This document shows positions 13,381 to 24,083 of a stretch of DNA of 64,000 nt, piece by piece. Below the pieces are notes generated by a model. That model was given only the letters and a program-made list of their open reading frames with translations, searched no databases and was not told the origin of the DNA. The stretch's first letter is position 1. The number at the start of each line of letters is the position of its first letter. The stretch is from Thalassospira lucentensis. Lineage in GTDB: Bacteria; Pseudomonadota; Alphaproteobacteria; Rhodospirillales; Thalassospiraceae. The stretch lies in assembly GCF_011806425.1 (NCBI RefSeq), contig NZ_JAATOV010000007.1, forward strand, positions 1 through 64,000, given 5' to 3'. The position numbers and the translations under genes were made by a program.

Positions 13381-14285
13381 GCTCCTCCGCGTGCGGCGGT
13401 ATCGGCCGATGAGCCAACAAAACACCGAACGGCAAACAGAACCGCCCACGTCATTGCCCCCAACGCGATGCTCAGCGCTGCGGCAACGGCCACATTGGCG
13501 TTTCGGGTAAACTCGGTATAGATCACCATCGGCAACACATCGATATCGGTCGCCAACGTAAAGGCCGTGCCAAATGCCCCCATGGCGGTGGCAAAGCAAA
13601 TCGCCCCAGACGACACAAGGCCGGGCATCAAACCGGGCAGGATCACATCCTTGATCACCCGCCATGTCGGCGCGCCAAGCGACCGTGCTGCTTCTTCAAG
13701 TTGCGGATCAAGCTTCTCGGCCGATGCCATCACCGCCAAAATCACCCGTGGGATCGAAAAGTATAAATAGCCGATAAACAGCCCGCTGATCTCATAGGCA
13801 AAGACGAGTTTCTCATCAAACAGCGCATCCGTAACACTGCCAATAACGCCCTGCCGACCCGCCAGCATAATCACCATAAAGCCAACAACCGTCCCCGGAA
13901 AAGACAGCGGCAAAGTCAAAAGCGCCATCAGCATATTGCGCCCGGCAAACCGGTTGCGCACCAAAAACAGGCCACAAACCCCACACAGGATAAGGGCGGT
14001 TAACGTCACCCCTGCCGACATCAAAAGCGTCTGAACCAAACTGGCAAAATACCGCCCGTTGGTCAGGATCACGAAATAGGTCGCCCACCCATCAGGCCCG
14101 TCTGCCACCCGCATCGCCACAAGTGCGAGCGGGATCAGGAAAAACGCCGCCACAATGATAATCCCCGGCGTCATCAAAAGGGCCAAGATCGCGGGGCTTC
14201 CGGCACCGGGGGTGGCGCGGCGCAAAAAACCAAATGGGAAAGAAGGGCGCGAACGCCCCTCTTGAATATTTTGAACCGACGACAC
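13377..14285 (-). CDS. ABC importer permease, first subunit (PotB-like)
   Basis: The protein has 302 residues from the GTG at 14285, one base after the solute-binding protein's TAA, with GAGG upstream. An ATG-initiated frame to 14426 would overlap the preceding gene by 140 bases and is rejected. Around six transmembrane helices. The EAA loop is EEAARSLGAPTWRVIKDVILP. The first ~35 residues are polar and variable. Confidence 0.9.
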   Translation of the reverse strand: MSSVQNIQEGRSRPSFPFGFLRRATPGAGSPAILALLMTPGIIIVAAFFLIPLALVAMRVADGPDGWATYFVILTNGRYFASLVQTLLMSAGVTLTALILCGVCGLFLVRNRFAGRNMLMALLTLPLSFPGTVVGFMVIMLAGRQGVIGSVTDALFDEKLVFAYEISGLFIGYLYFSIPRVILAVMASAEKLDPQLEEAARSLGAPTWRVIKDVILPGLMPGLVSSGAICFATAMGAFGTAFTLATDIDVLPMVIYTEFTRNANVAVAAALSIALGAMTWAVLFAVRCFVGSSADTAARGGA

Positions 14286-14286
14286 C

Positions 14287-15291
14287 TTAGCGCACCTCAG
14301 ACAGGTAACGTTCGCCAAAGCCCGACTGAACCTCTGCCATCTTGGCGTAATCAACCGGTTTGGATCGTTCATAATCGGCTGCTGGCAGGAATTTCTTGGA
14401 TGCTTCTTCTGACATCGCCGATGCAATTACCGGACGCAGGAAGGCATTCGCCCAATGGGCTTGCCCGTCATCGGACATCACATAATCCAGAACCTTTTTG
14501 CCATTCTCGGCATGCGGTCCGTTTTTCACCAGGCTCATGACGTATGGCACCGCAACCGTTCCTTCGCTCGGAATGACAAAGGAAACATCTGCTTCGTCTT
14601 TGTATTTCGCACGGTACGCGTTGAAATCGTAATCGATCAGGATCGGAATTTCACCCGACAGAACCCGCGCATAGGCGGTCTGTTTTGGCACGATCGGATC
14701 GTTTTCTTTCAGCTTCTTGAAAAATTCGATGCCCGGCGTGAAATCATCAAGCGTTCCGCCCATCGCACGGTTGATCGCAACGGCCCCGGCATAGCCGACA
14801 AACGCACTCGACGGATCAAGATACCCGACCATGCCTTTGTATTCCGGCTTCAAAAGATCCGACCAGCTTTGCGGAACGGCGGCACCGTCAAGCGCCTCGG
14901 TATTGACGAACAATCCGATGGTGCCTGAATGAATGGCAAACCACGCGCCTTCGGGATCTTTCAAGCCGTCTGGGATTTTATCGAAATTGGCCGGTTTATA
15001 ATTCGCCACCACGTCTTGCTGCTTGGCTTTGATGCCAAACGACACGCCGTAATAGGCAACATCGGCAACCGGATTGTCTTTTTCCGCCAAAAGCTGTGAC
15101 AACGTCTGGCCAGAATTTTTGTTGTCTTGCGGCACATCGATCTTAAGATCGCGCGCAATGTTTTTAAGCTGCCCACCCCAGTCAGCCCATTCCGGCGGAC
15201 AGTTATAGCAAATCGCAACATCGTCAGCAAAAGCAGGCTGCGCCGCCACAACGGCAAACGCGGCACCCATCACAAGTTGTTTGAAACGCAC
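14287..15291 (-). CDS. Periplasmic solute-binding protein of the ABC importer
   Basis: The protein has 334 residues from the GTG at 15291, 8 bases after AGGAAG; the frame upstream belongs to the LacI coding region. A signal peptide ends near AAQPAFADD. The mature part has the class II bilobal pattern of spermidine/putrescine, iron or phosphonate binding proteins (LYDP-like GYLDPSSAFVGYAG, SGEIPILIDYDFNAYRAK). An early CYNCPPEW gives two cysteines. The ligand is unknown. The operon's terminal phosphodiesterase hints at a phosphodiester or amine. Confidence 0.88.
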   Translation of the reverse strand: MRFKQLVMGAAFAVVAAQPAFADDVAICYNCPPEWADWGGQLKNIARDLKIDVPQDNKNSGQTLSQLLAEKDNPVADVAYYGVSFGIKAKQQDVVANYKPANFDKIPDGLKDPEGAWFAIHSGTIGLFVNTEALDGAAVPQSWSDLLKPEYKGMVGYLDPSSAFVGYAGAVAINRAMGGTLDDFTPGIEFFKKLKENDPIVPKQTAYARVLSGEIPILIDYDFNAYRAKYKDEADVSFVIPSEGTVAVPYVMSLVKNGPHAENGKKVLDYVMSDDGQAHWANAFLRPVIASAMSEEASKKFLPAADYERSKPVDYAKMAEVQSGFGERYLSEVR

Positions 15292-15308
15292 TTTTGATCT
15301 TCCTATAA

Positions 15309-16343
15309 TCAAGTTGATGAACAGTGCTGGTCGGTGCCACGGTACGATCCGATGGACTCTCCAGCGCTTAGATGATGAGGCAGCAACAAACTCTGTGGGT
15401 TTGCCTGCCCCTTGATCAGGCCGCGCAGGAATGCAAGCGCCTGCCGGCCCATCTCTTGGGTGGGTTGAACTGCCGAACACAGCTTTGGCGTGATCAGCCC
15501 ACCCACCGAAATTCCGTCAATCCCGCCAACCGACACATCATCGGGCACCGACAATCCATGTGCGCGACACGCATTCATCGCGGCAATCGCCAACATGTCG
15601 GTTGAACACACAACCCCGGTGACCTTTTCTGGCCCACATAGCAACGCGCCCAACGGGCCAACCAAATCGGCCTCATCAAAGCGCACCTGCACCAGGTTCT
15701 TTTGGGGGATCCCGGCATCATCAAGGGCACGGCAAAACCCGTCATAGCGTTGGCGCGACCGGTCTGAACTTTCAAAATGCCCGGCCACCATCGCAAGCGA
15801 CCGGTGCCCTTTGGCAATCATGGCGGTGGTAATGTCATAGGCCGACTGCGCGTTATCGACACTGATCGCGGCGATGTCGGCACGGCTTGGCTGGTTAAAC
15901 AGCAACACAAACGGGATTTTTTCCGCCAACAGCAAATCAACAACCGGGTTGTTGTCCGCATTCGCCAGCGTCAGGATCAATCCATCGACGCGATTATTCA
16001 AAAGGGCCGAAACCGCCCCCATTTCGCGTTCGGGATCATAATTTGATGACGTCAAAAGAACCGTCAGACCCTTGGCATTGGCATCCTGCTCAATGCCCTG
16101 CACCGCGGTTGCAAACACCGGATTGGCAAGGGTCGGCACCACAACACCGACCGTGCGGGTATGGGTCATCTTTAACCGGCGGCCATTGATGTTGGGCCGA
16201 TAATTCAGATACGCCATCGCCGCCGTCACGACCTTCGCCGTTTCGGCTGGCACCTGATCGGGGAAATTAATCACCCGCGATACGGTGGCAATGGACAAAC
16301 CTGATTTGCGCGCAACATCGCGCATGGTGGGTTTCGATGACAT
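15309..16343 (-). CDS. LacI-family transcriptional regulator
   Basis: A 344-residue LacI/PurR repressor. The N-terminal HTH is MRDVARKSGLSIATVSRVIN with hinge helix YRPNINGRRLK, followed by the periplasmic-binding-like sensor domain (TVGVVVPTLANPVFATAVQG). A CAGGAG box precedes ATG 16343. It is the first gene of the six-gene importer operon, 17 bases ahead of the solute-binding protein gene. A LacI-type palindrome lies ~85 bases upstream. It probably represses its own operon until the imported substrate or a metabolite binds. Confidence 0.9.
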   Translation of the reverse strand: MSSKPTMRDVARKSGLSIATVSRVINFPDQVPAETAKVVTAAMAYLNYRPNINGRRLKMTHTRTVGVVVPTLANPVFATAVQGIEQDANAKGLTVLLTSSNYDPEREMGAVSALLNNRVDGLILTLANADNNPVVDLLLAEKIPFVLLFNQPSRADIAAISVDNAQSAYDITTAMIAKGHRSLAMVAGHFESSDRSRQRYDGFCRALDDAGIPQKNLVQVRFDEADLVGPLGALLCGPEKVTGVVCSTDMLAIAAMNACRAHGLSVPDDVSVGGIDGISVGGLITPKLCSAVQPTQEMGRQALAFLRGLIKGQANPQSLLLPHHLSAGESIGSYRGTDQHCSST

Positions 16344-16426
16344 TCACAACAACTCCTGTAACGCCCCCACCATAGCGACGCTAAAAGTCAGTCTGATAAC
16401 GTATTTGTTGCAGTTTCATGAAGGTT

Positions 16427-16439
16427 TGAAACGTTTACA
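16427..16439. promoter_or_regulatory. LacI-type operator upstream of the importer operon
   Basis: TGAAACGTTTACA has the perfect core AAACGTTT (16429-16436), the usual LacI/PurR-class pattern with a central CG. It is the best palindrome in the gene-free stretch 16344-16777. The remainder of that stretch is increasingly AT-rich toward 16777, with no other element identified. Confidence 0.55.
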
Positions 16440-16795
16440 TTGGCGGAAAACAGCCATTCCCGCGATCAAGCTAAACCAATGGTTTTAGCGGTCATGCCGT
16501 CTTCCACGAAAGGTACCCGGTTAAAAATCAATAGCATGGGGACGCATCGCAAACCTCAATCATTCTTGGAAAATCTCAAGAATCCCAACAAAACATCACC
16601 GCGACGAATGGGTGCACATTCACGTCACAGAAAGCCGCGCCCGCTGAGAAAGCCATTCGTTATTTTTCCTTATCTTTCAATTCACTAAATCGCTTTTCAC
16701 CCTAATTAATAGAACCCAAAATCGGTAAAACAACCATTGATATAAAATTAAATTAGTATAACCTTATAGTTGAAATCATGTGGGGACAGTTTCAA

Positions 16796-19700
16796 ATGCT
16801 AAATACCAGTCAATCAGATCCAGCCGGGAACACAGTGATAAATATTCTGCTTGCTCAGGATGGCATCCCATTTTTCCCGGAACATGCTCATTTCGTTACA
16901 CTTTTCCTTGCACCAGACAAACATGACTGCCTTGATCACTGGCGTCATACCGTTCAGAAAATAAACAAAAAATGCGCTGAATTATCGGATCGGACTGTCT
17001 GTGTGTGCGGTGTGGATTACAACTTGTGGGAACAATGGTGTGATCTTCATGACATGCCCTACCCCCGCGGCACCACCAGCAAAGAGGACCTAGAACAGGC
17101 GCCCTTTACCGACAGCGGCGGACAATTGTGGTTCCATATCAAAAGCGACAGCCCCGACAACTGTGACCTGATCGCAAAGGAAATCATCCATTCCTTTGAA
17201 TCGCTGATTGACCATGACATTCAAACGACCGCGGCCAAACGAAAAGACGGCAAAGTCATCGGCGACCGTTTTCGCGATGCCATGATCAACCCGGTTGATC
17301 CGATCAATCTGTCGGAACGATGCACAATTGGCAATTCCGATGCCTACTATCGTGGTGGGGCTTACGTCATACAGCAAAAGTTCAAACACAATTGGACGCG
17401 TCTGGATGACATGACCATGATCGAAAAAGAAAACATGATCGGTCGCAACCACGACAACACCATCGTTCCAATGCACGATGACCGAAGCCATATAAAATGT
17501 GTGCGCCAGTTGAATGGCGAACGCGTAACCCAACGCATACTTCGTCAAGCCATACCCTATGGAAAGTCCCCAGAAGGCGGCGGACGGGAAGACGGCATCT
17601 ATTTTGTTGCCTATACCGACGATGGCGATGTCTATCACCAACTGATTGAAAACATCGTCGGCCCGAAAAAGGGCTTTGTGAAGGATAAACTTCTCAACAA
17701 CACCCACGCAGAATCCGGAAATTTCTGGTTTATTCCACCGGCCCGGCTGCTCGACGTTCCAACCAGCGATCAAAACCTGGATGTGCCGTTAAATGACTAT
17801 TTCGATCTGCGTAGCAAAAACGGCTACATGTTCTACAACAACCGCGATTACCTTCACAAAGCACAGAAGGTAAATGGCGATGGCGTTGACGCAATCAGTG
17901 ACCGTATCATGGTGCTGCTGGGGCAAACATTTAGTCGCTGGAATGACACATGGCAAAAGCCATGCGAAATGCCATACCTAGGACACCTGAATGACTATCT
18001 TGCCGAACCGCGTTGGCATGAATTTTCTGACATTGGGCAAAGTTCCTCTGCCGCCTTGCGTAAGGGTCTCGCAATCAAAATCAGTCTATCGGATGTCCTG
18101 CGCCGCGATAAATTCCGCGACGAGGCAAAGCTGTTCAATATTAAACCCTACGAGCTCATCGTCGGGAACATGCCCCCGCTAACACTTGGAAGCGGCACTC
18201 AGGTAATGGAATACCTGACAGAGGACGAGAAAATCGTTGGTTTCTTTGGGATGCTCAACGAATATTCCGCAACCGGGCATAATATTCCAAACTACCACAA
18301 GGCCATTAAGCTTGGTGTGCAAGGCCTTCTGGATGAAGCAAAAACCAAACTAGAACAGTCAGGTAGTGACACGGAAGATTTCTATCAGTCCGTCCTTTGG
18401 TCCCTCGAAGGCTTACAGGACTTCATTGCCGGCTATGCCGACCTTGCCCGCAAGGCTGAAAATGACACGCCTGATGAAGACACCTCATTGAAACACTGTT
18501 ATCGCGAGATAGCAGAACGCATGGACCGACTTGCGTCAGGCAAGCCCGACGGCTTCGTTGATGCCTTGCAGCTTATCTTCTTGATCAATTGCTCTTTGCA
18601 CCAAACTGGCGAACCGATGTCGATCGGGCGCCTGGATCAATATCTGATTGACGCTTACCAAAAGGACATTGAAACCGGAAAAATCAGCCAGTCAGCCGCA
18701 CAGGAAGCTATTGATGCCTTCTGGCTGAAAATGGACGAAACGGTTCATTACAATCGCCAAAACATAAAAGACTACCTGACATATGGTACAGGTGCTGTGT
18801 TCTATTCTGCAGGCAACTTCCCACAAGGAGCCGCACTTAACCAATGGGTTCAACAGGTAACACTTGGCGGCTACTTACCGACCGATGATACCGACCCCAA
18901 AGATGGCTGTAATGAACTCACATTACTCTGCCTGCGTGCGGCACGCCGATTACCCCTGAACGCACCCTGCGTTTCTTTGCGGGTGCATGACAAAATGGAG
19001 TCCGATCTTCATCGCGAAATCATTTCCGAAGCAGGAAAAGCGATACTGTCTGGCGGTGCGCATCCGATCCTTCTCAATGACGACAAGCTATGCAAGGCAC
19101 TGAAAGACAGCGGACCGCTTTCCCTTGCAGACTCACGTGATTATGTCTGCGATGGCTGTTACGAACCCGTGATTCAGGGGAAAAGCGAATGGGCATTTAG
19201 TTATGTCCCAATCCTTCCCACGGTTGGAATGGCGATGAATCAGGGGGCGACGATTGCCGGTGCTGGATGGGTGCATTTGCGTGGCCTCAAAACCGGCTGG
19301 AATTCCCCACCGCCCGAGGACATCCGTTCATTCGATGAATTCCTCGACATCTTCTTCACGCAGTATAAATGGCAAATCAGTGCTTTCTATAATGCGCTGA
19401 TGAATGGCTATGGGGATTTGTGGCCAATTTGTCCAAGCCCGCTGTTCTCTTCGATGACGGACGGCTGCATGGAAACAGGTCGCGACATGACGAACGGCGG
19501 TGCCCAGTATCATATCGTCGCCCCCATGATGTGCGGCATTACCAATGCCATCAACGCTCTTTATGCCATCAAAAAAATGGTCTTTGATGCCGATACAGCC
19601 GTAACCAACCTTCCTGAATTGCGTCAGGCCCTGTTCAACAACTGGGGTCTGAACATGCAGGAGCCTTTCAACAATGTTCTCGCCGGCCCTGTCCGCGCCG

Positions 19701-20407
19701 AGGCCGCAGCCCTTCGCTACAAGGAATTGCGTGAACACGCGCTCACCTTGCCTAAATTCGGAGAAGGTGAATCCGATGAGCTTAAGAAACTTGGCGAAAC
19801 AGTTGTTGGCAAATGCGTAGAGATCATACGCGACGGGATCGACAAACCACTTCCACCGATCAAGGCCGCGTACGATAAGCTGAAGGAAAAATACAGTCTG
19901 CCCGACAAAGAGTTTTCTTTCACAATCACCCCCGGCGTTGGCACGTTTGAGGACAATCTGGGACTTGGTTACACGATGGGCGCATCCGCTGATGGTCGGA
20001 TTTCCGGCGAACCGATTGCCGACGATTTCTGCCCCGCGCCGAGCCCAATTGACATGCCGCCGATGACCAAACCCATTGATTTGATCAAGGGATTGAAAGA
20101 CTGGAATACCGATCCGATCAATTTCGGGCTGTCAAATGCTGCACCGATTGACCTCAATATTGATGAGAATTTCGGCCTTAAAGACGTCGAAGAAGTCATT
20201 GGTCTGTTCGCAAAAAGTCAGATTGGATCGAACCTAATCACGATGACAACCGCCGATCCGCAAACCTATGAACGGTCTCTCAAGTTTCCTGAAAAATATG
20301 ATCTTGTGCGCGTTCGTCAGGGCGGCTGGAGCGAGTTTTTCGTCGCAATGTTCCCCGAACACCAAAACTACATCCAACGACGTCCTTATTACCGCATCAA
20401 GAAATAA
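16796..20407 (+). CDS. Fusion protein: N-terminal DyP-type haem peroxidase + C-terminal glycyl-radical enzyme
   Basis: A single open frame of 1203 residues. Residues ~25-325 resemble DyP-type peroxidases. They retain the distal Asp in RFRDAMINP (D161; the usual Gly of GxxDG is Ala), the proximal haem ligand in DDRSHIKCVRQ (H232) and an Arg in RILRQAIPYG (R250), plus the DyP block MTMIEKENMIGR. Residues ~440-1203 form a complete PFL-like glycyl-radical domain. It shows GHNIPNYHKAIKLGVQG, the thiyl-radical loop CDGCYEP (C788, E790) and the C-terminal glycyl loop RQGGWSEFFVAMFPEHQ (G1177). The C-x-E pair is as in dehydratase/lyase types. No signal peptide. ATG 16796 has GGGGA upstream; ATG 16778 does not. 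The substrate is unknown. Confidence 0.88.
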   Translation: MLNTSQSDPAGNTVINILLAQDGIPFFPEHAHFVTLFLAPDKHDCLDHWRHTVQKINKKCAELSDRTVCVCGVDYNLWEQWCDLHDMPYPRGTTSKEDLEQAPFTDSGGQLWFHIKSDSPDNCDLIAKEIIHSFESLIDHDIQTTAAKRKDGKVIGDRFRDAMINPVDPINLSERCTIGNSDAYYRGGAYVIQQKFKHNWTRLDDMTMIEKENMIGRNHDNTIVPMHDDRSHIKCVRQLNGERVTQRILRQAIPYGKSPEGGGREDGIYFVAYTDDGDVYHQLIENIVGPKKGFVKDKLLNNTHAESGNFWFIPPARLLDVPTSDQNLDVPLNDYFDLRSKNGYMFYNNRDYLHKAQKVNGDGVDAISDRIMVLLGQTFSRWNDTWQKPCEMPYLGHLNDYLAEPRWHEFSDIGQSSSAALRKGLAIKISLSDVLRRDKFRDEAKLFNIKPYELIVGNMPPLTLGSGTQVMEYLTEDEKIVGFFGMLNEYSATGHNIPNYHKAIKLGVQGLLDEAKTKLEQSGSDTEDFYQSVLWSLEGLQDFIAGYADLARKAENDTPDEDTSLKHCYREIAERMDRLASGKPDGFVDALQLIFLINCSLHQTGEPMSIGRLDQYLIDAYQKDIETGKISQSAAQEAIDAFWLKMDETVHYNRQNIKDYLTYGTGAVFYSAGNFPQGAALNQWVQQVTLGGYLPTDDTDPKDGCNELTLLCLRAARRLPLNAPCVSLRVHDKMESDLHREIISEAGKAILSGGAHPILLNDDKLCKALKDSGPLSLADSRDYVCDGCYEPVIQGKSEWAFSYVPILPTVGMAMNQGATIAGAGWVHLRGLKTGWNSPPPEDIRSFDEFLDIFFTQYKWQISAFYNALMNGYGDLWPICPSPLFSSMTDGCMETGRDMTNGGAQYHIVAPMMCGITNAINALYAIKKMVFDADTAVTNLPELRQALFNNWGLNMQEPFNNVLAGPVRAEAAALRYKELREHALTLPKFGEGESDELKKLGETVVGKCVEIIRDGIDKPLPPIKAAYDKLKEKYSLPDKEFSFTITPGVGTFEDNLGLGYTMGASADGRISGEPIADDFCPAPSPIDMPPMTKPIDLIKGLKDWNTDPINFGLSNAAPIDLNIDENFGLKDVEEVIGLFAKSQIGSNLITMTTADPQTYERSLKFPEKYDLVRVRQGGWSEFFVAMFPEHQNYIQRRPYYRIKK

Positions 20408-20414
20408 ACCTCTG

Positions 20415-20451
20415 ATGCGGGTCATTCAGGATCAAACCGAATGGCCCGCAT
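20415..20451 (+). other. Intercistronic hairpin between the fusion gene and the HAD lipoprotein gene
   Basis: ATGCGGGTCATTC (20415-20427) pairs with GAATGGCCCGCAT (20439-20451) with one wobble and an 11-base loop. No T tract follows, and the next gene starts 21 bases later, so it may stabilise or process a shared transcript rather than end it. Confidence 0.45.
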
Positions 20452-20471
20452 GTCTCGGGTAGGAGCATTCA

Positions 20472-21425
20472 ATGAAATCTGTCGCGATTGCCTTCATCTC
20501 GGCCGTTATATTGTCCGGCTGCGCCGCATCTGGCGCCAAACACGCAACACTTTCCTCCGTTGCATCCTTTTCGGAAATGGAAACCAAAATTGCCCAATGG
20601 GGTGATGCTGCCATGCCGAACACACTCATTGTTATGGACGATGACGATACGTTGACAATGATGGACTGTCCGGTGCAATCGGATCCTGAACAGTGTCAGT
20701 ATATCGGTGGTCCAGCTTGGTATGCATGGCAATCAAGCATTCTTAACGACCCAACCAACCCTTACCGGGTCGCCAAAACCAGCGATGATCTTCTCAGCAT
20801 ATCCGCACTTTTGCTTGGCATGAACAACATGCCCTATACAGATCCAGATATCCCCAAGGTTCTGTCTGATCTTACGGAAAAAGGCGCACGCTTGTTGGTT
20901 TTGACCGCACGCGGCAACAGCAATGTCTCTGCGACGGAATCGCAATTCACAAACCTGGCCGTCGCCCAAAAAGATTTTCTAAGCTTTGTAAAAGACAATG
21001 CCCTGCTCGGAACTCAAAGTCGTATCGCAAGCATTGCCGGACCTGTAATTCCGGCGGCTTGTCCGGCACATATTCCCGTTACTTACCAACAGGGGGTCAT
21101 GTATGTCTCGGGCCAGAACAAAGGTGACATGTTGAAATGCCTTATGGCGATCACAAACGTCAATAACGTTCGCAACATTGTGTTTCTCGATGACACCGCC
21201 GCAAATGTACAAGACGTCTATAAGGCATTTGAAAACAGCAAAAACCTAAATGTTCTCGCGCTGCATTACACAAGGCTGGAAGCACACAAAAATGCGCTAA
21301 CCCAACCAGCGGCTAGCTCGTTACCTGACAACAAATACCAGATGAAGGCAAATGCTCGCTGGCGTGCGCTCAAATCGATGATGGATCAGGAACTTCTCCG
21401 ACCGAACTTGCCCGCATCGAACTAA
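20472..21425 (+). CDS. HAD-fold (DUF2608-like) lipoprotein, putative phosphatase
   Basis: A 317-residue lipoprotein with signal peptide and lipobox LSGC (Cys17). The HAD motifs are visible: motif I MDDDDT (D56xD58xT), motif II VLTARG, and the acidic motif IV FLDDTAANV. This matches the DUF2608 group of secreted or surface HAD phosphatases. GTAGGAG precedes ATG 20472. It lies 64 bases after the peroxidase/glycyl-radical fusion on the same strand and shares its lower GC, so the two may be co-transferred. A functional link is unproven. Confidence 0.75.
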   Translation: MKSVAIAFISAVILSGCAASGAKHATLSSVASFSEMETKIAQWGDAAMPNTLIVMDDDDTLTMMDCPVQSDPEQCQYIGGPAWYAWQSSILNDPTNPYRVAKTSDDLLSISALLLGMNNMPYTDPDIPKVLSDLTEKGARLLVLTARGNSNVSATESQFTNLAVAQKDFLSFVKDNALLGTQSRIASIAGPVIPAACPAHIPVTYQQGVMYVSGQNKGDMLKCLMAITNVNNVRNIVFLDDTAANVQDVYKAFENSKNLNVLALHYTRLEAHKNALTQPAASSLPDNKYQMKANARWRALKSMMDQELLRPNLPASN

Positions 21426-21438
21426 ACCGGCAAACAAC

Positions 21439-21477
21439 AGCTTTTTGATCCTGCCAGTAGATCGGGATCAAAGAGCT
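21439..21477. terminator. Bidirectional terminator hairpin between convergent genes
   Basis: AGCTTTTTGATCC (21439-21451) pairs with GGATCAAAGAGCT (21465-21477), 12 of 13 positions. It lies between the lipoprotein stop and the histidine kinase stop, overlapping the latter. Confidence 0.6.
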
Positions 21478-22876
21478 AACTCTGATGCAACCAAAGTTCC
21501 GCCATGAAACCATCCGGTTTGCCAGGGCGCGGGGAATGCAGGGTCAATTTGCCGCCGGTATTGCGCATGATGGTATCAACAATCGAAAGCCCCAATCCCG
21601 CACCGCGCGCCTTGGTGCGCGATCGTTTGAACCGGGCGGTCAATTCGGTCATATCCTGTGGGTCAACCACATCACCATTATTGGACACCGTGATCACGTT
21701 GCTGCCGGTGATTTCAATCACCACCGGGCTGTCGTCTTTGCCGTGTTTCAGGGCGTTTTCAATCAGGTTGCGCATACAAATCGCAAACGCATCGACATCG
21801 ATATTGGCGCTTAACGCATCGCGTTGATCCGGGGCGCAATAAATGCGGCCGGCCCCGTCTGACACCCGTTCAAGGTCATCAATCACCATCGATAACGTCA
21901 TGCCAAGGTTCTGGTTTTCCCCCGTCGGGCTTAGTCCCACCCCGGCTTCGGCACGCGCAAGCTGAAGCAGTTTCTCAGACAAGCGCGAAAGCCGCTTTAA
22001 CGATTCTTCGGTTTGTTGGGCGCGTTTAAGCCCCTGTGGATTATCGGTCAGTTCCAGCAAAAGCCGCTGCGTCTGGGCCAATGCCGCCGCAATCGGGGTG
22101 CGCAATTCATGGGCACTATGCGCGGTAAAGGTCCGCTCGGCGCGCAATGCCGCATCAAGCTTTTCCATCAGCCGATTAACCGCGCGCACAATGGTATGGA
22201 TTTCGTCGGGTGCGTCATGTTGCTCAATCGGCGAAAGGTTGCCTTCGCTGCGCGCTTCAATATCATCGCGCACCCGCCGGACCGGTTGCAATCCTTGGCG
22301 CACGGCAAAGATAATCCCGATAATCACGGCGGGGATCAGCAAGATGATGGGCAAGAACTGCGCGCTGACACTCGCCACAAGGGCCTCGTGACGGTGATTA
22401 AGCGATTCCGCAACCTGAATAACCCGCGTGCCATCATGCACCACGGCAGAATAAATGCGAAAATCGTCGTCGGTATGAAATCCTTCCAGCAACGGCGCGG
22501 AATACGGCTTATCTGACGCATTGGCTGAGCGCAGCAAAAGCCGCCCGGACAAATCGCGCACCTGATACATCAGATAATCTTCGCCGATTTCATCCTCGCC
22601 CTCGCCGCGATCGCCGGTTTTGTTTTCGCCCTGATCGGGGCTTTGGACCACCACCGTCTGGCTGTCACTGCCATTATGGATCAGGTAATCATCAATCAAC
22701 GGCGCATAGCGATAGGCCGATTTGACAAGGCTGCTGTCAAACACCTCCTGCATCTCGTGATACATGGTAAAATCGGCAAGCAACGATCCGGCGATCCAAA
22801 AAAGACTGATCATCACCGTCAGGCGTTTGGTCAGGGCAAATTGCAGGCTTTTGGTCGAAAACATCCGCATTCTCAT
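21476..22876 (-). CDS. Sensor histidine kinase (PmrB/QseC-like)
   Basis: A 466-residue inner-membrane kinase. Transmembrane helix 1 is near residues 16-36 and helix 2 near 175-195, with a periplasmic sensor of ~140 residues between. HAMP, then the H-box FTAHSAHELRTPIAAAL, N-box NLIENALKH and G-box GAGLGLSIVD. The periplasmic loop has a very acidic patch (DRGEGEDEIGEDY) containing an ExxE motif, which in PmrB senses ferric iron and aluminium. ATGA overlap with the response regulator gene shows coupling. With adjacent PepSY and b561 genes it resembles the PmrAB/QseBC class. Confidence 0.92.
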   Translation of the reverse strand: MRMRMFSTKSLQFALTKRLTVMISLFWIAGSLLADFTMYHEMQEVFDSSLVKSAYRYAPLIDDYLIHNGSDSQTVVVQSPDQGENKTGDRGEGEDEIGEDYLMYQVRDLSGRLLLRSANASDKPYSAPLLEGFHTDDDFRIYSAVVHDGTRVIQVAESLNHRHEALVASVSAQFLPIILLIPAVIIGIIFAVRQGLQPVRRVRDDIEARSEGNLSPIEQHDAPDEIHTIVRAVNRLMEKLDAALRAERTFTAHSAHELRTPIAAALAQTQRLLLELTDNPQGLKRAQQTEESLKRLSRLSEKLLQLARAEAGVGLSPTGENQNLGMTLSMVIDDLERVSDGAGRIYCAPDQRDALSANIDVDAFAICMRNLIENALKHGKDDSPVVIEITGSNVITVSNNGDVVDPQDMTELTARFKRSRTKARGAGLGLSIVDTIMRNTGGKLTLHSPRPGKPDGFMAELWLHQS

Positions 22877-23532
22877 CCCTCTACCCGATAGCCAACACCA
22901 CGCACGGTTTTAATCACATCCTTGCCCAGTTTGCGCCGCAGGCGACTGACATAAACCTCAACCGTGTTGCTTTCGATTTCGGCGCCAAATTCATAAAGCG
23001 CTTCTTCAAGTTGCGGCTTGGAAAGTGTTTGTCCCGGGCGGCGCACCATCTGATCAAGCAACGCCCATTCACGCGATGTCAGATCAATCTGCGCACCGTT
23101 AATCAGGACAACCCGCCCGGCCAAATCCACCTCAACCCCACCGGCCAATTCAACAAACGGATTGGGATTGCCGCTATAACGCCGCGCCACCGCCGACAAC
23201 CGCGCCGACAGCTCGTTTAAATCAAACGGTTTAACCAGATAATCATCCGCCCCGGCATTGAGCCCCTCGATCCGGTCGGAAATCTGATCTTGCGCGGTCA
23301 GGATGATGCACGGCATCGCCGATCCATTGCGGCGCAACACGCGCAGCAAATCAATCCCCCGCCCATCCGGCAGGTTAAGGTCTAGCAACAGCACATCATA
23401 ATTAGTACCCCGGATCATGATCTCGGCATCATGGATGCTTTCGGTGTGATCGACCGCTTCGCCGGCGGCCAATAAATGATCCCGCACCGCCTCGGCCAGC
23501 ATGACCTCGTCTTCAACCAAAAGAATTCTCAA
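22873..23532 (-). CDS. OmpR/PmrA-class response regulator
   Basis: A 219-residue two-domain regulator. The receiver has acidic pocket LVEDE, phospho-acceptor Asp51 in LLLDLNLPDGRG and conserved Lys in VKPFDLNEL. The C-terminal winged helix ends VYVSRLRRKLGKDVIKTVRGVGYR-like (the signature runs through residues 195-217). It is translationally coupled to the kinase gene downstream. Tandem CCTGA repeats just upstream (23586-23650) and before eptA are its likely binding sites. Confidence 0.93.
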   Translation of the reverse strand: MRILLVEDEVMLAEAVRDHLLAAGEAVDHTESIHDAEIMIRGTNYDVLLLDLNLPDGRGIDLLRVLRRNGSAMPCIILTAQDQISDRIEGLNAGADDYLVKPFDLNELSARLSAVARRYSGNPNPFVELAGGVEVDLAGRVVLINGAQIDLTSREWALLDQMVRRPGQTLSKPQLEEALYEFGAEIESNTVEVYVSRLRRKLGKDVIKTVRGVGYRVEG

Positions 23533-23585
23533 AACCCATCCCTCGCCTGCACTGCGCCATGTGACCGGCCTGCTTATCCAGACTT

Positions 23586-23650
23586 CCTGACACCAACCTG
23601 AACGCCCCTGATTTTGTCCTTCAGGCAGCTGTCAGGAAACCCTGTCATCT
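23586..23650. promoter_or_regulatory. Tandem CCTGA response-regulator boxes in the divergent promoter
   Basis: CCTGA stands at 23586 and 23597 (11 bp period) and 23607. On the other strand CCTGA occurs at 23636-23632 and 23625-23621, again 11 bp apart. CCTGTCATCT follows at 23641-23650. The set sits between the two-component operon and the PepSY gene, so both divergent transcripts could be controlled. The same elements precede eptA (6745-6803). Confidence 0.55.
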
Positions 23651-23744
23651 TCTGGCCCATCGGACACAGATGGCGTCCATCCGCTTTGTCTTTTCGTCTT
23701 GTTTGATCTTGTGTCGTCTTTGACCTTTATGAAGGAACTGCGCT

Positions 23745-24083
23745 GTGAAAAGAACTGTTTTCCCCACCCCTGCATCAAAATCCATCCTGTCAAAATCCAC
23801 CTTGTCGGCGGCGATTGCCTTTGCGCTTTTGACCGCCGCGTCCCTTGGTGTGGCCTCAAGCCCGGCCCATGCCGATGATGACATGTGCAACGTTCCCAAG
23901 GCCGATTGGAAAACCAAAGAAGCGCTTCGCGAAAAGCTCACCGCCGAAGGTTGGGATGTGCGCAAAGTCAAAACCGAAGACGGCTGCTTTGAAGTTTACG
24001 CCATCGATGCCAAGGGCAAAAAGGTCGAAGCCTATTTTAACCCGGCCACCTTCGACACCGTCAAAATCAAACAAGAAGACTAA
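23745..24083 (+). CDS. Secreted PepSY-domain protein
   Basis: A 112-residue exported protein starting at GTG 23745 after AAGGA. The signal peptide is cleaved near SSPAHADD. The mature ~70 residues form one PepSY domain (TKEALREKLTAEGWDVRKVK ... CFEVYAIDAKGKKVEAYFNP). Small PepSY proteins are commonly found beside QseBC/PmrAB-type systems and b-type cytochromes. It is divergent from the two-component operon and followed by the b561 gene. Its role, perhaps in periplasmic metal or redox sensing, is inferred. Confidence 0.85.
   Translation: MKRTVFPTPASKSILSKSTLSAAIAFALLTAASLGVASSPAHADDDMCNVPKADWKTKEALREKLTAEGWDVRKVKTEDGCFEVYAIDAKGKKVEAYFNPATFDTVKIKQED

What the first reader, a model, noticed from the sequence alone, without database searches (positions are those of the whole stretch)
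16796..20407. A haem peroxidase fused to a glycyl-radical enzyme in one polypeptide
Seen: one uninterrupted 1203-codon frame carries DyP-type features (D161, H232, R250 in recognisable contexts) and, downstream, a complete glycyl-radical domain with thiyl Cys788, neighbouring Glu790 and radical Gly1177. Known: DyP enzymes consume H2O2 with haem; glycyl-radical enzymes are cleaved by O2 at the radical glycine. Inference: the peroxidase half may scavenge peroxide to protect the radical, or use a product of the radical half, allowing radical chemistry in a facultative aerobe. I know of no described enzyme with this architecture.
Basis: partly seen in the sequence, partly recalled or inferred. Interest (0 to 1): 0.93.

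Follow-up and report, generated by a model that had tools for sequence, protein, structure and literature searches.

The report
Peroxide-started glycyl-radical-type enzyme
One bacterial gene joins a haem peroxidase to a barrel of the glycyl-radical-enzyme type, and because most of the examined genomes that carry this pair show no known enzyme for starting such radicals, the haem half is predicted to start the radical with hydrogen peroxide.

Summary
It is not unique: over 100 near-full-length homologues exist, and the DyP-PFL architecture was described in print in 2016 (PMC5041501), function unknown.

New here: (1) The pairing looks obligate. In 65 of 65 informative related loci the barrel comes with a DyP, fused in 51 and as the next gene in 14; the separate DyPs are of another subfamily, in opposite order. 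(2) The activase is usually missing: 47 of 67 carrier genomes have neither a canonical GRE activase nor AmrS over curated cut-offs. In the window's genome only AmrS remains as a candidate, and it is background in its order (165 of 199). (3) Catalytic Cys and Gly are almost invariant, but the Gly_radical domain no longer matches its profile. (4) Here the gene sits in a ~5-kb insert with one DUF2608 gene and no activase.

Best reading (inferred): the haem half starts the thiyl/glycyl radical with H2O2 in place of radical SAM. The protection-only reading fits less well.

The parts
16778..20407 (+). DyP-GRE fusion gene, 1209 aa (alternative ATG at 16796 gives 1203 aa)
16835..17758 (+). DyP-type haem-peroxidase half, residues ~20-327
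17276..17278 (+). Asp167, distal Asp of the haem pocket (D 130, E 18, H 16 of 164 rows with a letter)
17489..17491 (+). His238, proximal haem ligand, 166 of 166 rows with a letter
17543..17545 (+). Arg256, distal Arg (R in 156 of 166 rows with a letter)
17867..20401 (+). PFL-like / glycyl-radical-type half, residues ~364-1208
19157..19159 (+). Cys794, predicted thiyl-radical Cys in DGCYEP (C in 182 of 184 rows with a letter)
19163..19165 (+). Glu796 of the C-x-E-P motif of eliminase-type GREs (184 of 184 rows with a letter)
20324..20326 (+). Gly1183 in R-x-R-[MQT]-G-G-W, at the radical-Gly position; surrounding domain diverged
20472..21425 (+). DUF2608 gene (HAD-like DxDDT motif and lipoprotein-type N-terminus, both read by eye), travels with the fusion
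   Evidence: Pfam PF11019; next to the fusion also in L020-L023, L031, L037
16457..21477 (.). Inserted ~5.0-kb segment holding the two genes above and no activase gene; replaced by ~210 bp in same-genus relative L163 and ~180 bp in L164
   Evidence: GC of the two genes 0.49-0.50 against 0.53-0.58 in seven flanking genes

Best explanation
It is a DyP haem peroxidase fused to a PFL-like, glycyl-radical-type barrel, in which the haem half is predicted to start the barrel's radical with H2O2, in place of a radical-SAM activase. Shown: the fusion, its near-invariant Cys/Gly/haem-His residues, its pairing with a DyP in every informative locus (fused or adjacent), the shortage of recognisable activases in carrier genomes, and its presence here in a two-gene insert without an activase. 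Inferred: H2O2 turns the haem into Compound I; the oxidising hole passes through aromatic residues to Cys794, directly or by way of Gly1183; the Cys794 thiyl radical abstracts H from a substrate bound at the eliminase-type C-x-E-P site, with Glu796 as base. The logic would be that of class I ribonucleotide reductase (a metal-derived radical delivered to a thiyl Cys in a related barrel; recalled), but with haem and H2O2. The substrate is unknown; it is probably not a simple diol as in glycerol dehydratase, because partners of recalled diol-binding residues differ in the alignment.
For: (a) 65 of 65 informative loci carry a DyP, 51 fused and 14 as the next gene. The scan used two barrel motifs only, so the DyP was not selected for. 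(b) The separate DyPs are another subfamily (L075's closest to EfeB/YcdB; the window's to DypB; profiles match at 21% identity) and follow the barrel gene instead of preceding it, so the pairing seems to have been made or renewed more than once. (c) Canonical GRE activase TIGR02494 is over cut-off in 3 of 67 carrier genomes, AmrS in 19 of 67, neither in 47 of 67. The window genome's 10 PF04055 loci all pass NCBIfam cut-offs for other families (MoaA, MiaB, MtaB, HemN, HemW, LipA, RlmN, PA0069, QueE) or AmrS. Collimonas (L064) has 12, none matched by the activase model at E<=0.001 or by the AmrS model. (d) Controls: a canonical GRE in the same order has a radical-SAM/ferredoxin gene directly downstream (L122); in Chromobacterium (L063), whose activase lies ~7.7 kb from the fusion, that activase directly follows its own PFL gene. 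(e) Cys794 in 182 of 184 and Gly1183 in 179 of 180 rows with a letter. The two Tyr rows are one decayed sequence (P0036 = L027) that also lacks the Gly region. (f) The Gly_radical domain, which activases act on (recalled), has lost its profile. (g) The barrel lies here in an insert with DUF2608 only. (h) The distal Arg is lost only in rows with His at 167 (10 of 16; D or E rows keep it, 148 of 148), and in those genomes activases are commoner: TIGR02494 2 of 5 against 1 of 62, AmrS 4 of 5 against 15 of 62.
Against: No radical, haem or activity has been measured. An activase of an unrecognised kind cannot be excluded; the cut-offs are strict (L039 and L041 genomes reach 127-128 bits on the main stretch, cut-off 174; the L058 genome has AmrS at 202 bits, cut-off 220), and Collimonas keeps two radical-SAM proteins that pass no NCBIfam cut-off in the call (L152, SPASM-type; L154, no match at 1e-40). 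The window genome and 7 of 10 of its closest clade do have AmrS, which resembles PFL activase (58 bits, below cut-off). PMC5041501 reports a putative PFL activase in Chaetomium (sequence not seen). Conserved Gly1183 argues for a stored glycyl radical, which O2 would destroy (recalled). Point (h) rests on five genomes, which share ancestry in part. Many carriers are MAGs whose completeness was not given, and the 47 include genomes with a decayed copy (L027, L090) or a contig-cut one.
Confidence: 0.42

Rival explanations
1. The barrel is a true glycyl-radical enzyme activated by a radical-SAM enzyme elsewhere in the genome (here AmrS of the AmmeMemoRadiSam system), and the DyP half scavenges peroxide to protect it.
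For: The window genome's only PFL-activase-like radical-SAM protein is AmrS (TIGR04337 641 bits; PFLA 58 bits, below its cut-off), with a MEMO-AMMECR1 gene beside it. AmrS is in 7 of 10 of the closest clade and 19 of 67 carriers. A putative PFL activase is reported in Chaetomium (PMC5041501).
Against: 48 of 67 carriers lack AmrS over cut-off. AmrS is in 165 of 199 genomes drawn from the order while the fusion is in one (the other match is a canonical GRE), so it is background there. In the flanks held for the 71 loci the AmrS query hits only L063, a PFL-activase-type protein that follows a PFL gene. The Gly loop that an activase would grip is remodelled.
Confidence: 0.22
2. The two halves catalyse successive steps: the DyP oxidises a substrate or product of the barrel with H2O2, and the barrel is started by an unknown activator.
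For: Both active sites are conserved in most rows; fusions of pathway enzymes are common (general knowledge); a LodA-type oxidase, an H2O2-forming family (recalled), lies near L079.
Against: Two different DyP subfamilies serve the same barrel, which is odd for a substrate-specific step. In 16 rows the distal Asp is His and in 10 of these the Arg is gone too, although the barrel residues stay. It still leaves the start unexplained.
Confidence: 0.18
3. The barrel has lost radical chemistry and serves as a scaffold or non-radical lyase, with Cys and Gly kept for structure.
For: No Gly_radical profile match in the window protein; no recognised activase in 47 of 67 carriers.
Against: Cys794, Glu796 and Gly1183 are invariant or nearly so across phyla, and the one copy with another residue at 794 also lacks the Gly region, as expected of a decayed gene (L027/P0036).
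Confidence: 0.1

Closest known systems
DyP-PFL fusion of Chaetomium cochliodes and relatives (Zamocky et al. 2016, PMC5041501; passages read)
   Same: N-terminal class-B DyP, C-terminal PFL domain, said to occur also in prokaryotes; function unknown; gene induced 3-fold by H2O2 and 18.5-fold by peroxyacetic acid in the fungus
   Different: The passages I read do not speak of separate DyP partners, of carriers without an activase, or of a diverged Gly domain; they report a putative PFL activase in the fungus.
C-x-E-P glycyl-radical eliminases (B12-independent glycerol dehydratase 1r8w, propanediol dehydratase 5i2a, CutC 5faw)
   Different: 20-26% identity in structural alignment; Gly_radical profile not met; no paired activase; diol-site partners differ (read: His281 to Glu612, Ser282 to Pro613; roles in glycerol dehydratase recalled); a DyP is fused or adjacent
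Class-B DyP peroxidases (DypB, DtpB)
   Same: Fold, proximal His, distal Asp and Arg
   Different: Joined to a radical-enzyme barrel; in a subclade the distal pair is replaced
Class I ribonucleotide reductase (recalled)
   Same: Predicted logic: a metal cofactor and an oxidant deliver a radical to a thiyl Cys in a related barrel
   Different: Haem and H2O2 instead of di-iron and O2; different substrate; a Gly is retained

Membership tests
Glycyl-radical enzymes | PFL-like barrel | tested here: met
Glycyl-radical enzymes | Thiyl Cys in the finger loop | tested here: met
   Cys794 aligned with the GRE Cys; 182 of 184 rows with a letter
Glycyl-radical enzymes | Glycyl-radical domain (Pfam Gly_radical) | tested here: not met
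   No match in the genome at E<=0.001 or in the C-terminus at E<=10; of three relatives scanned, two at 14.3 and 16 bits and one without a match, cut-off 22.2
Glycyl-radical enzymes | A Gly at the radical position | tested here: met
   Gly1183 aligned with the radical Gly in three printed GRE alignments; 179 of 180 rows with a letter
Glycyl-radical enzymes | Dedicated radical-SAM activase in the genome | tested here: not met
   Window genome: TIGR02494 best 37 bits, cut-off 174. Carriers: 3 of 67 over cut-off
Glycyl-radical enzymes | Stable glycyl radical by EPR | not testable with these tools
   Needs protein
DyP-type peroxidases | Curated family score | tested here: met
   TIGR01413 109.8 bits, cut-off 100.5
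DyP-type peroxidases | Proximal His, distal Asp and Arg | tested here: met
   His238, Asp167, Arg256 aligned with DypB
DyP-type peroxidases | Haem binding and H2O2-dependent oxidation | not testable with these tools
   Needs protein
DyP-PFL fusion of PMC5041501 | N-terminal DyP and C-terminal PFL in one chain | tested here: met
AmmeMemoRadiSam target | Consistent co-occurrence with AmrS | tested here: not met
   AmrS over cut-off in 19 of 67 carriers; fusion in one of 199 genomes of an order where AmrS is in 165 (164 over cut-off)

The most novel reading that the evidence does not exclude
A haem peroxidase has replaced the radical-SAM activase: DyP-GRE proteins and DyP/GRE gene pairs are H2O2-started, air-compatible members of the glycyl-radical-enzyme fold, a haem counterpart of class I ribonucleotide reductase, and the first GRE-type enzymes that need neither SAM nor an iron-sulphur activase.
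Probability: 0.38. Interest if true: 0.93.

Novelty: new variant of a known kind. Interest (0 to 1): 0.76.

Why it matters
Glycyl-radical enzymes are textbook anaerobic catalysts, destroyed by O2 and started by radical-SAM activases (recalled). A widespread branch that comes with a peroxidase in every informative locus seen and usually without a recognised activase makes a direct test possible: can peroxide start this barrel? If so, the powerful eliminations of GREs become usable in air, the evolutionary link between GREs and oxygen-dependent ribonucleotide reductases gains a second example, and an unexplained fungal and bacterial gene gets a function. If not, the same data point to a new kind of activase.

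Tried and rejected
AmrS (AmmeMemoRadiSam) as the dedicated activase: considered seriously, because it is the only PFL-activase-like radical-SAM protein in the window genome. Rejected as a general answer: absent over cut-off from 48 of 67 carriers and background in the order.

Defence-system membership: PADLOC gives no hit at E<=0.01 for the fusion, one separate barrel and one separate DyP (L075). Neighbouring PLD-like and nuclease genes of distant members look like conflict islands; in the window no such Pfam domain was found in the ten neighbouring frames scanned.

LacI/ABC-transporter genes as functional partner: rejected; they are present without the fusion in two same-genus relatives.

tRNA as integration site: no tRNA in 14000-24000.

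Geometry of an electron path: not done, because model coordinates are not among the script files.

Literature: ten searches; among the papers listed I found only PMC5041501 on this architecture (passages read). Others were not opened, apart from one passage of PMC12235711, which names an AmmeMemoRadiSam protein in a fungus; one search listed 12 of 28. The library holds open-licence papers only.

Corrected on checking: I first counted L080 as a 15th adjacent pair. One search shows that its contig ends inside the barrel and that the hit was to an over-extended reading frame, so L080 is now set aside.

Rows dropped: 6 of 71 loci were set aside before the 65 count (L070, L080, L084, L088, L089 cut by contig ends; L090 a deletion relic). 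The 51 fused include frameshifted or decayed copies (L027, L032, L060, L082, L087) and one cut at a contig end (L033). Four loci share a genome with another, giving 67 genomes. One search listed 120 of 651 hits, and only the 7991 candidates sharing most words were scored; site counts use those 120, 64 locus frames of 700 aa or more and the window. P0001 (99%) is probably the window's own protein, and some P and L rows are the same sequence (P0043/L043, P0018/L037, P0036/L027), so rows are not all independent. The tree used 74 rows, a quick method and a long outgroup branch.
Full report

Known or not. A protein search returned 651 hits and listed 120, most of them fusions at 41-99% identity; 107 of the 120 have at least 1150 residues. 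The architecture is in print: PMC5041501 (passages read) describes a DyP-PFL fusion in Chaetomium cochliodes and says that it occurs in other prokaryotes and eukaryotes, that its significance is elusive, and that the gene is induced 3-fold by H2O2 and 18.5-fold by peroxyacetic acid. Among the papers listed by ten searches of the held library I found no other on it.

The barrel comes with a peroxidase. A scan of one genome for each of 84,980 species with two barrel motifs gave 71 loci. 51 carry both halves as one gene, counting some frameshifted or decayed copies. In 14 the barrel stands alone as a gene and the next gene on the same strand is a separate DyP: 13 by clustering and L072 by tblastn; Pfam DyP domains were checked on five of the 14 (L066, L075; L072, L085, L086). 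Six loci say nothing (five cut by contig ends, one deletion relic). So 65 of 65 informative loci have the pair. The separate DyP of L075 resembles EfeB/YcdB, the fused one of the window DypB; the two profiles match at 97.9% probability but 21% identity, and the gene order is reversed. On a quick tree of 74 barrels the 13 stand-alone ones (L080 included) form one side of a branch (support 97) and the 60 others one group (94), with a canonical GRE as a distant outgroup. One barrel family is thus joined to two DyP subfamilies.

The usual starter is usually missing. The window genome has ten loci with the Radical_SAM domain, and each passes the NCBIfam cut-off of a known family: MoaA, MiaB, HemN, LipA, PA0069, QueE and AmrS, MtaB, HemW and RlmN. 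The canonical GRE-activase model reaches 37 bits at best, cut-off 174. Over 67 carrier genomes that model passes in 3, AmrS in 19, and neither in 47 (tally). Three further genomes come near a cut-off: L039 and L041 (127-128 bits on the main stretch) and L058 (AmrS 202 bits, cut-off 220). L063 is counted as passing, with its neighbouring stretches (182.5 bits). Of the twelve radical-SAM loci of Collimonas, five pass NCBIfam cut-offs (RimO, BioB, PA0069, RlmN, QueE), five match MoaA, MiaB, LipA, HemN and HemW of the window genome, and two are unassigned (L152, SPASM-type; L154); the activase model finds nothing in that genome at E<=0.001. Controls: a canonical 789-aa GRE in the same order is followed directly by a radical-SAM/ferredoxin gene (L122), and in L063 (Chromobacterium) the activase ~7.7 kb from the fusion directly follows a gene with the PFL motifs (motifs recalled). 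Several carriers belong to genera that are aerobic by recall (Flavobacterium, Sphingomonas, Massilia, Saccharopolyspora, Corallococcus).

What is conserved and what is not. Over 185 rows: Cys794 182 C, 2 Y, 1 gap; Glu796 184 E, 1 gap; His501 184 H, 1 gap; Gly1183 179 G, 1 K (a frameshifted copy), 5 gaps; haem His238 166 H, 19 gaps. The two Tyr rows are one sequence (P0036 = L027) that also lacks the Gly region, as expected if both residues matter together. By contrast Pfam Gly_radical is not matched in the window protein; of three relatives scanned, two reach 14.3 and 16 bits (cut-off 22.2) and one has no match, against 120 bits for the canonical control. Since radical-SAM activases act on that loop (recalled), its change fits a change of starter. 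In the DyP half the distal Asp is D (130), E (18) or H (16). Every D or E row keeps Arg256 (148 of 148); 10 of 16 H rows have lost it. In the five H-type genomes tested, canonical activase passes in 2 of 5 against 1 of 62 elsewhere (Fisher p 0.013), and AmrS in 4 of 5 against 15 of 62 (p 0.020). That is what replacement of one starter by another would give, but the numbers are small, the test was chosen after seeing the data, and the genomes partly share ancestry.

A natural transplant. Of 199 genomes drawn from the order only this one carries the fusion (the other match is a canonical GRE). In two same-genus relatives the flanking LacI/ABC genes and the histidine kinase/response regulator are colinear, and window ~16457-21477 is replaced by ~210 bp in L163 and ~180 bp in L164. 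The insert holds the fusion and a DUF2608 gene (PF11019); these have GC 0.49-0.50 against 0.53-0.58 in seven flanking genes. DUF2608 lies beside the fusion in L020-L023, L031 and L037 as well, so the pair probably moves as a unit. Gain here is more likely than loss in both relatives, but that was not tested further.

Most likely working. Inferred: H2O2 makes Compound I in the DyP half; the hole moves to the barrel and makes the Cys794 thiyl radical, perhaps stored at Gly1183; the thiyl radical then starts an elimination at the C-x-E-P site. Aromatics conserved in at least 96% of 160 fused rows and able to form part of a relay include Trp206, Tyr353, Trp388, Trp392, Trp690, Trp956 and Trp1184, but no path was measured. 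The alternatives (AmrS-activated and peroxidase-protected; tandem catalysis; non-radical barrel) are given with their evidence. I hold the peroxide-start reading at 0.42 because its key step is untested and AmrS is present in this very genome.

Membership. By fold, Cys and Gly position it descends from glycyl-radical eliminases, but two features that define working GREs (the Gly_radical profile, an activase) were tested and not met. So it is filed as a GRE-derived enzyme that probably works by a thiyl radical, not as a proven GRE. The DyP half meets the sequence tests for a DyP.

Noticed in passing
window genome G000:C8, locus L019:6892-10128: Complete AmmeMemoRadiSam set (fused MEMO-AMMECR1 gene and divergent AmrS); AmrS is in 165 of 199 genomes drawn from the order. 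Its target is unknown to me.
   Followed up: partly
L034, L036, L053, L059, L066, L068, L073, L074, L075, L077, L078, L081: Distant DyP-GRE members sit beside PLD-like, Endonuclease_NS (some with Trypsin), CHAT or cytidine-deaminase genes (by clustering, Pfam on examples), which looks like a conflict or defence island.
   Followed up: partly
DyP half, residues 167 and 256 in L031, L034, L036, L044, L059 and 11 protein rows: In rows with His at 167 the distal Arg is lost in 10 of 16, never in D or E rows; the peroxidase may be crippled there, and activases are commoner in those genomes.
   Followed up: partly
L079:16385-18466; L023:2-2017: LodA-type oxidase gene beside the DyP-GRE of a Marinobacterium MAG (Pfam), with a similar gene near the Pleionea fusion.
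   Followed up: no
P0037, P0038 (1525 and 1527 aa): DyP-GRE fusions whose precomputed Pfam domains include PF00191, annexin by recall.
   Followed up: no
L027, L082, L090, L032, L060, L087: Decayed or frameshifted copies; L027 lost both the Cys and the Gly region.
   Followed up: yes
L020, L022, L023, L029, L045, L049, L060: A PF04185 phosphoesterase gene (Pfam on L029) recurs near fusions.
   Followed up: no
L044 and L067: One Acidobacteria MAG carries both the fused and the separate form.
   Followed up: no
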